A stretch of DNA of 64,000 nucleotides from Micropruina glycogenica. GTDB taxonomy: Bacteria > Actinomycetota > Actinomycetes > Propionibacteriales > Propionibacteriaceae. The stretch is from assembly GCF_900289045.1 (NCBI RefSeq), contig NZ_LT985188.1, positions 1,550,001 to 1,614,000 on the forward strand, in the 5' to 3' direction. Every line of letters starts with the position of its first letter. Position 1 is the stretch's first letter. Made by a program: the position numbers and the translations under genes. A model generated the notes under the pieces. The model was not told where the DNA came from. It did not search any database and saw only the letters and a program-made list of their open reading frames with translations. Shown in pieces: positions 14,357-16,041 of this stretch.

Positions 14357-14872
14357 ATGCGCAACCTCGAGGCGGTGACCGGCGACATCACCACCCAGAC
14401 CACCGACGCGATCGTCAACGCCGCGAACGCAACGCTGCTGGGCGGCGGCGGCGTGGACGGAGCGATTCACGCCGCCGCCGGACCACGGCTGCTCGAGGCG
14501 TGCCGGCGAGTGCGTCGAACCACCTGGCCCGACGGGCTGCCGGTCGGCGAGGCGGTGGCCACCGAGGCGTTCGACCTGCCCGCCCGTTGGGTGATTCACA
14601 CCGTGGGGCCGAACGCCCACCGGGGCCAGACGGACCCGGCGATGCTGGCCTCCTGCTTCACCCGTTGCCTCGACTTCGCCGCCGAACTCGGCGCCACCAG
14701 CATCGCGTTTCCGGCCGTCAGCGCGGGCGTGTACGGCTGGGACGCCGACGACGTGGCACGCATCGCCGTCGATGCCGTGCGCCGGCACCCGTCAGAAGGC
14801 GTCCAACTCGTGCGTTTCGTGCTGTTCGGCGATCGGTTGCGGGTCGCGTTCGATCGGGCCTTGGCGAACTGA
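14357..14872 (+). CDS. Macro-domain protein (O-acetyl-ADP-ribose deacetylase type)
   Basis: A 171-residue single macro domain that binds ADP-ribose and usually removes acetyl or ADP-ribosyl groups. The hallmark motifs are present: GDITTQTTDAIVNAAN (residues 9-24, with the ligand-binding Asp10 and Asn24), LLGGGGVDGAIHAAAG (27-42), and AFPAVSAGVYGWD near 116-128. It matches the MacroD/YmdB subgroup. It diverges from the DUF6882 gene, with about 90 bp between starts. No good Shine-Dalgarno sequence is seen; a TACCCT hexamer 34 bp upstream could be a -10 element. Confidence 0.92.
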   Translation: MRNLEAVTGDITTQTTDAIVNAANATLLGGGGVDGAIHAAAGPRLLEACRRVRRTTWPDGLPVGEAVATEAFDLPARWVIHTVGPNAHRGQTDPAMLASCFTRCLDFAAELGATSIAFPAVSAGVYGWDADDVARIAVDAVRRHPSEGVQLVRFVLFGDRLRVAFDRALAN

Positions 14873-14970
14873 ACCGACCGCACAGTCACGTTCAGGCTGG
14901 TCGCTGTATCGCGGGGTCGCCGGTTGTACTCATTGTGGTCGACCCGGCCCGTCCGCAGAGAGGAACGACC

Positions 14971-15564
14971 ATGAACGACCCCCTGACCGCATCAAGGCGC
15001 AACCTGCTGGTCGGCAGCGGCATCGGTACCGCCGGCCTGTTCGGCATGACCGGCCCGTCGTTGGCCACCGCCGTTCCCATGGCCTTCGTGCCGCCCGACC
15101 ACGATGCCAGCGGCGTGACGTGGTGGTTGCGTCTCGACGGCATCGTCGGCGAGTCGCTCGACCGTGACCATCCGCGCCAGATCGAGGTGCGAGCGATGGA
15201 CTGGCAGTCCACTCAGAAGTCGACCAGCGTGGCCGGGGCTGCGTCGAAAGACATCTGCCTGGCTCTCGCCACGAGTTCGGCCTCGCCCGCGATTCTCAAG
15301 AATTGCGTGCAGGGTTCGGCCGTCGCCACCGCGACTCTCAGCGGGCGCAAAGCGGGCGAGGGGCAGAAGGACTTTCTGACCTGGGACTTCACCAACCTGC
15401 GGATCAAGTCCTACGACGTGGCGTTCACCGACGGTCCGCCGCTCGACGTCGTCACCTTCTCGTTCACCCAGGTGACCATGACCTACCGCCCGCAAGACAT
15501 CAAGGGTGGCCTGGGCGCGGCGGTGACGGTGACCTGGAACGTCAAGAGCGACAAGGTGAGCTGA
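14971..15564 (+). CDS. Tat-exported Hcp-like protein
   Basis: A 197-residue protein with a twin-arginine signal (SRRNLLVG at 8-15, hydrophobic stretch, cleavage probably near ALA-type site about 33) followed by a type VI tube protein (Hcp/DUF796-like) fold. Family signs are WWLRLDGIVGES (about 50-61), HPRQIEVRAMDW (64-75), ILKNCVQG, ATLSGRKAG, KDFLTWDFTNLRIKSYD and VTMTYRPQD followed by GAAVTVTWNVK near the end. AGAGAGGA lies before ATG 14971. I see no other type VI secretion component in the window. Exported Hcp homologues in Gram-positive bacteria have no settled role; this could be a ring-forming surface or extracellular protein. Confidence 0.75.
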   Translation: MNDPLTASRRNLLVGSGIGTAGLFGMTGPSLATAVPMAFVPPDHDASGVTWWLRLDGIVGESLDRDHPRQIEVRAMDWQSTQKSTSVAGAASKDICLALATSSASPAILKNCVQGSAVATATLSGRKAGEGQKDFLTWDFTNLRIKSYDVAFTDGPPLDVVTFSFTQVTMTYRPQDIKGGLGAAVTVTWNVKSDKVS

Positions 15565-15572
15565 CCCCCGTC

Positions 15573-15654
15573 GGTCGAGCTTGTCGAAACCCGTACGGGA
15601 CGCGGTCTCGACACGTTGTGCCCAGCGATGCCCGGGGTCTCGACGAGCTCGACC
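15573..15654. repeat. Inverted pair of repeat-family A
   Basis: A forward copy at 15573-15591 (GGTCGAGCTTGTCGAAACC) and an inverted copy at 15636-15654 (GGTCTCGACGAGCTCGACC), with a degenerate copy around 15604-15616. Together they can form a long hairpin between the convergent hcp-like gene and the gene at 15688. Confidence 0.75.
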
Positions 15655-15687
15655 AACGCGAGCCCGTCCGAACTCGACGAGCGGCGA

Positions 15688-16041
15688 TTAGTAGCTGGGT
15701 GTGGGCTGGGCCGAGATGATCAGCGCGGCGTTGAGCGCCACTATGGTCAGAATCGCCAGCACGACCCACCACACCCGACTCAGGGGCCGCTTGAGCAACG
15801 TGAGCACCAGCCCGATCGCAGCACCCGCTGCGCCGGCCCAGGCCGTCCACGCCAGTGCGACCCGCTCGGGGTAGGTGTGCGTCATCGACTGCACACCACC
15901 GTCGGGTGCCGGCAGCGAGTAATGATCCACCGAGAGCCCGGTGAGCATCACCCCAGACAGCAGGCACGCCACCACCATCAGCGAGAGCACCACGATCGGC
16001 ACCACGGGCGACTGCTGCGCCCCGTTGTCGTCGGCCGTCAA
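15688..16041 (-). CDS. Small membrane protein downstream of sigA
   Basis: A 117-residue predicted membrane protein with three hydrophobic helices at about 13-35, 66-82 and 91-109. It has a short polar N-terminus and ends in a proline-containing tail. A loop of about 30 residues after the first helix would be extracytoplasmic. It begins 4 bp after the sigA stop codon, so it is probably co-transcribed with sigA. I recognise no family or function. Confidence 0.65.
   Translation of the reverse strand: MTADDNGAQQSPVVPIVVLSLMVVACLLSGVMLTGLSVDHYSLPAPDGGVQSMTHTYPERVALAWTAWAGAAGAAIGLVLTLLKRPLSRVWWVVLAILTIVALNAALIISAQPTPSY

What the first reader, a model, noticed from the sequence alone, without database searches (positions are those of the whole stretch)
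14971..15564. Twin-arginine-exported Hcp-fold protein in a Gram-positive bacterium
Hcp forms the type VI secretion tube in proteobacteria, which this organism is not. Here the fold carries a Tat signal (SRRNLLVG), implying folded export to the exterior. No T6SS gene is visible. It could form rings or fibres on the surface.
Basis: partly seen in the sequence, partly recalled or inferred. Interest (0 to 1): 0.55.

Follow-up and report, generated by a model that had tools for sequence, protein, structure and literature searches.

The report
Exported Hcp-fold protein in Micropruina
A wastewater actinobacterium carries a relative of the tube protein of the type VI secretion "syringe", but without the syringe and with what looks like a tag for export from the cell, so it may work as a stand-alone extracellular ring or surface protein.

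Summary
Window 14971-15564 (+) encodes a 197-aa protein with an Hcp domain (Pfam PF05638, E 1.1e-21). Its AlphaFold2 model matches solved Hcp structures at Z up to 19.5. The N-terminus looks like a twin-arginine signal (SRRNLL, weakly hydrophobic stretch, ATA site), and the genome has TatC. The curated Tat model scores it below cut-off (12.7 of 16.7 bits). The host is Micropruina. TssB, TssC and phage-type sheath genes are absent, so no type VI machine is served. A second Hcp gene without a signal lies elsewhere. The gene is missing near the same macro-domain gene in all five genus relatives. Its loop L2,3, which supports ring stacking in one studied Hcp, is the shortest of 44 rows compared, which favours single rings over tubes. 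Signal-bearing Hcp-fold proteins recur in the class: 19 of 28 examined look Sec- or Tat-exported, seven with a collagen-like stretch. Best reading: a tube-protein relative reused as an extracellular ring or matrix protein. Export is likely; rings and function are untested.

The parts
14971..15564 (+). Hcp-fold gene, 197 aa, P0001
   Evidence: Translation; PF05638 E 1.1e-21; fold match Z up to 19.5
14959..14964 (+). Likely ribosome-binding site AGAGGA, 6 bases before the ATG
   Evidence: Read from the sequence; not tested
14971..15072 (+). Putative Tat signal peptide, residues 1-34, ending ATA
   Evidence: SRRNLL motif and hydropathy; TIGR01409 12.7 bits, below its cut-off of 16.7; model pLDDT under 50
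15127..15486 (+). Hcp domain, residues 53-172
   Evidence: PF05638 match; barrel and one helix in the model
15214..15237 (+). Shortened loop L2,3, residues 82-89
   Evidence: 29 residues from W78 to P106 against 33-38 in 43 other rows; pLDDT under 50
14357..14872 (+). Upstream neighbour, macro-domain protein, kept in the genus
   Evidence: PF01661 E 4.6e-40; found in 6 of 6 genus genomes
15569..15658 (.). Imperfect inverted repeat behind the gene
   Evidence: Two 24-nt arms, 88% complementary; copies of the motif elsewhere in the window
15688..16041 (-). Downstream neighbour, small hydrophobic protein, no Pfam family
   Evidence: ORF; no match; next to the macro gene without an Hcp between in G017

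Best explanation
The gene encodes a relative of the type VI tube protein Hcp that does not serve a type VI machine. It folds in the cytoplasm, is exported by Tat, loses its signal at ATA|VP, and acts outside the single membrane as an Hcp ring or as free subunits, as a structural or adhesive part of the wall or floc matrix. Shown: the gene, the predicted Hcp fold, absence of the sheath genes searched, a TatC gene, and that relatives lack the gene at this site. Inferred: Tat export and cleavage (likely), ring formation (plausible, with weakened stacking), matrix or adhesion role (least sure).
For: Hcp domain and fold. RR motif with moderate hydropathy, between that of unsignalled and Sec-like relatives. 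TatC present. No TssC, TssB or PF04984 sheath. About 48 residues precede the fold, where 28 proteobacterial relatives have almost none. Other signal-bearing Hcp-fold proteins in the class. T6SS_HCP-domain proteins among predicted secreted, potentially aggregate-forming proteins of sludge granules (PMC12019908, section 18 read).
Against: TIGR01409 below cut-off and PF10518 silent. No operon partner or wall anchor was recognised. The gene is absent from all five genus relatives at this site, so it is not a conserved function of the genus. Oligomer state is untested, and the shortened loop may also mean lost assembly. In the phylum survey 11 further Hcp-like proteins showed no signal by eye.
Confidence: 0.45

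Rival explanations
1. A recently acquired Hcp gene with no settled role: a drifting orphan whose signal-like N-terminus is incidental or non-working.
For: Present only in this genome at this site; long branch and no clear nearest relative; shortened loop; weak Tat scores.
Against: The frame is intact and coding-like, the fold is predicted with confidence, and similar signal-plus-Hcp proteins occur in other families.
Confidence: 0.25
2. A cytosolic Hcp-fold protein, like the second Hcp of this genome, whose N-terminus only resembles a signal.
For: Weak Tat scores. The paralogue L002 has no signal and its neighbour carries CHAT and TCAD7 domains, so cytosolic Hcp folds without a type VI system exist here.
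Against: No other ORF in the window met the signal rule. The N-terminal extension is missing in 28 proteobacterial relatives. The neighbours scanned are a macro-domain gene, a small protein and a sigma factor, not CHAT genes.
Confidence: 0.15
3. A tube part of an undetected contractile machine (type VI, eCIS or phage tail) in this genome.
For: Hcp fold. A Micropruina relative has a sheath gene on the same contig as its unsignalled Hcp.
Against: No TssC, TssB or PF04984 in the own genome, which is one contig rated 100% complete. Machine tubes assemble in the cytoplasm and carry no export signal (established knowledge). VgrG, TssK and TssM were not searched.
Confidence: 0.04

Closest known systems
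Hcp / TssD, type VI secretion tube protein (PF05638; PDB 1y12, 3v4h, 4tv4)
   Same: Fold and sequence domain
   Different: Signal-like N-terminus, no TssB or TssC in the genome, shorter L2,3 loop, below the TssD model cut-off
Hcp-domain proteins with PEP-CTERM signals in Gram-negatives (PMC8262886, methods passage)
   Same: Hcp domain joined to an export or sorting signal
   Different: Other signal type and cell envelope; that study set them aside
Signal-bearing actinobacterial Hcp-fold proteins L010 and L017
   Same: SRR motif plus Hcp fold; L010 is 34% identical over 150 residues
   Different: Other families, longer L2,3; one origin of the three is neither shown nor rejected (support 74/36). 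L017 passes the Tat model (18.4 of 16.7), L010 is not listed for it
Second Hcp of the same genome (L002)
   Same: PF05638, similar score
   Different: No signal, own C-terminal tail, neighbour with CHAT and TCAD7 domains

Membership tests
Hcp superfamily (PF05638) | Pfam domain over the curated cut-off | tested here: met
   77.9 bits against 23.5
Hcp superfamily (PF05638) | Hcp barrel fold | tested here: met
   Z 19.5 to 4tv4, 18.8 to 1y12; the model was built with an Hcp alignment
Type VI secretion TssD (working tube) | Sheath genes TssB and TssC in the genome | tested here: not met
   0 matches in the own genome; the E. coli control rings in both
Type VI secretion TssD (working tube) | Score over the TssD model TIGR03344 | tested here: not met
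   22.2 of 58.9 bits; other Hcp-fold proteins scanned also fall short
Type VI secretion TssD (working tube) | Hexamer rings that stack | not testable with these tools
   No oligomer prediction; loop L2,3 shortened
Tat substrate | Twin-arginine motif, weakly hydrophobic stretch, AxA site | tested here: met
   SRRNLL, hydropathy 1.57, ATA
Tat substrate | Score over a curated Tat model | tested here: not met
   TIGR01409 12.7 of 16.7; PF10518 no match
Tat substrate | Tat translocase in the genome | tested here: met
   TatC E 2.8e-60; TatA not searched
Tat substrate | TatC-dependent export | not testable with these tools
   Needs an experiment
eCIS / phage-tail tube | Sheath PF04984 in the genome | tested here: not met
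   0 in the own genome; present in 4 of 21 genomes searched

The most novel reading that the evidence does not exclude
Actinobacteria have taken the type VI tube fold out of the secretion machine and made it an extracellular ring-forming module. It exists as free rings (Tat and Sec forms, the window gene among them) and as heads on collagen-like stalks. In tandem-Hcp stalk proteins (L007, L084) a collagen trimer would bring 3 x 2 Hcp domains together, enough for one pseudo-hexameric ring.
Probability: 0.3. Interest if true: 0.72.

Novelty: new variant of a known kind. Interest (0 to 1): 0.5.

Why it matters
Domain databases label such genes 'type VI secretion system effector', which misleads for a genome without TssB and TssC. 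If exported Hcp rings exist in Gram-positives, a well-studied ring former has a second life outside injection machines, and single genes would suffice to test it. It would also suggest a protein component for floc and granule formation in wastewater bacteria.

Tried and rejected
A named-genome scan with P0001 alone matched 41 stretches but no relative; a viral-contig scan matched 3 and none. Phage records gave four hits, all in Salmonella or Escherichia entries; plasmids gave 70 records, all under 60% identity. PHROGs gave one unnamed family. A second named scan with a three-row alignment returned 30 loci, 29 proteobacterial and one Micropruina. It used two short motifs, so it says little about the true nearest relative.

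Origin: trees did not place P0001. A clade with the two other Tat forms (support 74/36), with the proteobacterial group (p-AU 0.32), with L004 (0.24) and with the unsignalled Micropruina Hcps (0.47) is in no case rejected. Six long rows were dropped (L013, L014, L015, L016, L019, L022). L038 first seemed to share the N-terminus (query residues 4-196), but it has a start just before the Hcp fold and I treat the upstream match as chance. L061 was left out because its match frame gave no Hcp ORF. L056 was aligned in a wrong frame and redone.

Counts: 28 proteins; L004 was left out because its start region is broken or of low quality. I chose the start codons. The 11 phylum-survey proteins are not among the 28 and show no signal by eye. 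The surveys overlap and are samples; the phylum search scored only 8 candidates a genome. The six genomes with Hcps new in the order survey were not tested for TssB. Promoter and terminator scans found nothing.

Literature: the searches listed no paper whose title or abstract start names an exported Hcp in a Gram-positive or a collagen-Hcp fusion. They cover open-licence PMC papers only, most lists were cut, and I read passages or one section of four papers, so this is no proof of absence.

Full report
What is there. Window 14971-15564 (+) holds an ORF of 197 aa. It starts at an ATG behind AGAGGA and has third-position GC of 0.879. Pfam finds one family at E up to 1: PF05638 T6SS_HCP, residues 53-172, E 1.1e-21. 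NCBIfam's narrower TssD model matches at 22.2 bits, below its cut-off of 58.9. By sequence the best solved structure is 3v4h (E 7.9e-18).

Fold. AlphaFold2 on P0001 with 29 relatives gave mean pLDDT 74.2. Most blocks of the barrel and helix are over 80; residues 1-38, 40-46 and 82-89 are under 50. Among the listed Foldseek matches every one is an Hcp, a fusion or complex that contains Hcp, or a type VI assembly. VIA-align gives Z 19.5 (rmsd 2.6, 144 aligned) to 4tv4 and 18.8 to P. aeruginosa Hcp1 (1y12); phage, pyocin and eCIS tubes follow at about 8-10. The model was made with an Hcp alignment, so it is not independent of the sequence match. No oligomer could be modelled.

Export signal. Residues 8-13 read SRRNLL, followed by a weakly hydrophobic stretch and ATA before V35. 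The best 12-residue hydropathy in the first 45 residues is 1.57. The same measure is 0.77-1.43 in nine actinobacterial Hcps without a signal, 1.62 and 1.73 in two others with SRR motifs, and 2.16-3.18 in sixteen with Sec-like N-termini. It is at most 1.14 in 28 proteobacterial Hcps. A combined rule over 1868 starts in the window picked only this ORF, but I wrote the rule knowing the protein. Against it, TIGR01409 is 4 bits under its cut-off and PF10518 is silent. The genome has TatC. I take Tat export as likely, not shown.

Host and machinery. So the host is Micropruina; a paper title in a listing places the genus in phosphorus-removal sludge (PMC5974061, listing only). The window genome is one contig of 3.84 Mb. 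It has two PF05638 genes, no TssC, no TssB and no PF04984 sheath. Of 20 Hcp-bearing genomes tested, own included, none has TssB. Of 19 proteobacterial genomes that hold pattern-found relatives, 14 have TssC and 5 do not.

Locus. The order is macro domain (+), this gene (+), small protein (-), sigma-70 factor (-). In G017, rated 100% complete, the macro and small-protein genes are about 40 bp apart and no PF05638 gene was found in the genome. In G087 macro and sigma factor are under 100 bp apart. In G058 another ORF lies between, which I read as an acetyltransferase without a scan. In G040 about 1.1 kb of repeats lies between. In G073 no Hcp lies within 1.5 kb of the macro gene. So the gene is particular to this genome at this site. 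No operon partner is evident.

Loop L2,3. From W78 to P106 this protein has 29 residues. The 28 proteobacterial rows have 34-38, the 15 actinobacterial rows 33-38, and two solved Hcps 36. In B. pseudomallei Hcp1 two residues of this loop are needed for hexamers to pair into dodecamers, and the authors leave open whether this holds for other Hcps (PMC4650826, passages). I infer weaker stacking here: rings rather than tubes, or no assembly.

A wider pattern. In samples of 117, 394 and 391 genomes of the family, class and order (overlapping, own included), 6, 15 and 10 had PF05638 over its cut-off. Of 28 proteins examined, 3 have Tat-like, 16 Sec-like and 9 no signal; L018 of the Sec-like ones also has an RR motif. 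Seven of the Sec-like ones carry a Gly-x-x run before the Hcp domain. Pfam's Collagen model is over its cut-off in L012, L018, L023 and L084 and below it in L007, L020 and L021. L023's Hcp match is itself just under the cut-off. L007 and L084 have two Hcp stretches each. In the phylum survey 11 more proteins showed no signal by eye, so export is not general.

Exported relatives in print. A study of Gram-negative Hcps removed PF05638 genes with PEP-CTERM signals from its set (PMC8262886, methods passage), so Hcp domains with sorting signals were already met. A secretome study of sludge granules clusters T6SS_HCP-domain proteins among predicted secreted, potentially aggregate-forming proteins (PMC12019908, section 18).

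Mechanism. Best reading: fold in the cytoplasm, Tat export, cleavage, then ring or subunit acting in the wall or matrix. The matrix role rests on analogy with the stalked forms and the sludge secretome, and is the weakest step. Rivals are a drifting acquired orphan, a cytosolic protein with a chance N-terminus, and an undetected machine.

Verdict. The protein belongs to the Hcp superfamily but fails the tested marks of a working type VI tube. It is a new variant of a known kind, one case of a scattered group of signal-bearing actinobacterial Hcp-fold proteins for which my searches listed no study.

Noticed in passing
L077:5876-6415 (-) in the own genome; L003, L005, L006: A second Hcp type of Micropruina without a signal shares a C-terminal tail PGSGG(V/I)WRPR. 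In the own genome its neighbour carries CHAT and TCAD7 domains, and a CHAT protein lies nearby.
   Followed up: partly
L075:2901-19999: In a Micropruina relative (G073) the unsignalled Hcp lies beside a CHAT+TCAD7 gene, a CBM9-like gene and eCIS-type genes (Pvc16_N, AAA ATPase, phage sheath) on one contig. The own genome lacks the sheath.
   Followed up: partly
L007, L012, L018, L020, L021, L023, L084: Sec-like signal, Gly-x-x collagen-like stretch, then one or two Hcp domains in one protein; possible stalked Hcp heads.
   Followed up: partly
window 15573-15590 and eight other places; L073: Intergenic motif GGTCGAGCTTGTCGAAAC, 9 copies in the window at up to 2 mismatches and 15 in 3.5 kb of L073 at up to 3, none expected by chance.
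   Followed up: partly
L004 / L056: Another Micropruina Hcp groups with proteobacterial Hcps (98/96), which hints at gene transfer; its start region is broken or of low quality.
   Followed up: partly
L039, L040: Two Rhodoferax genomes have an Hcp of this group but no TssC match, so Hcps without TssC also occur in Gram-negatives.
   Followed up: no
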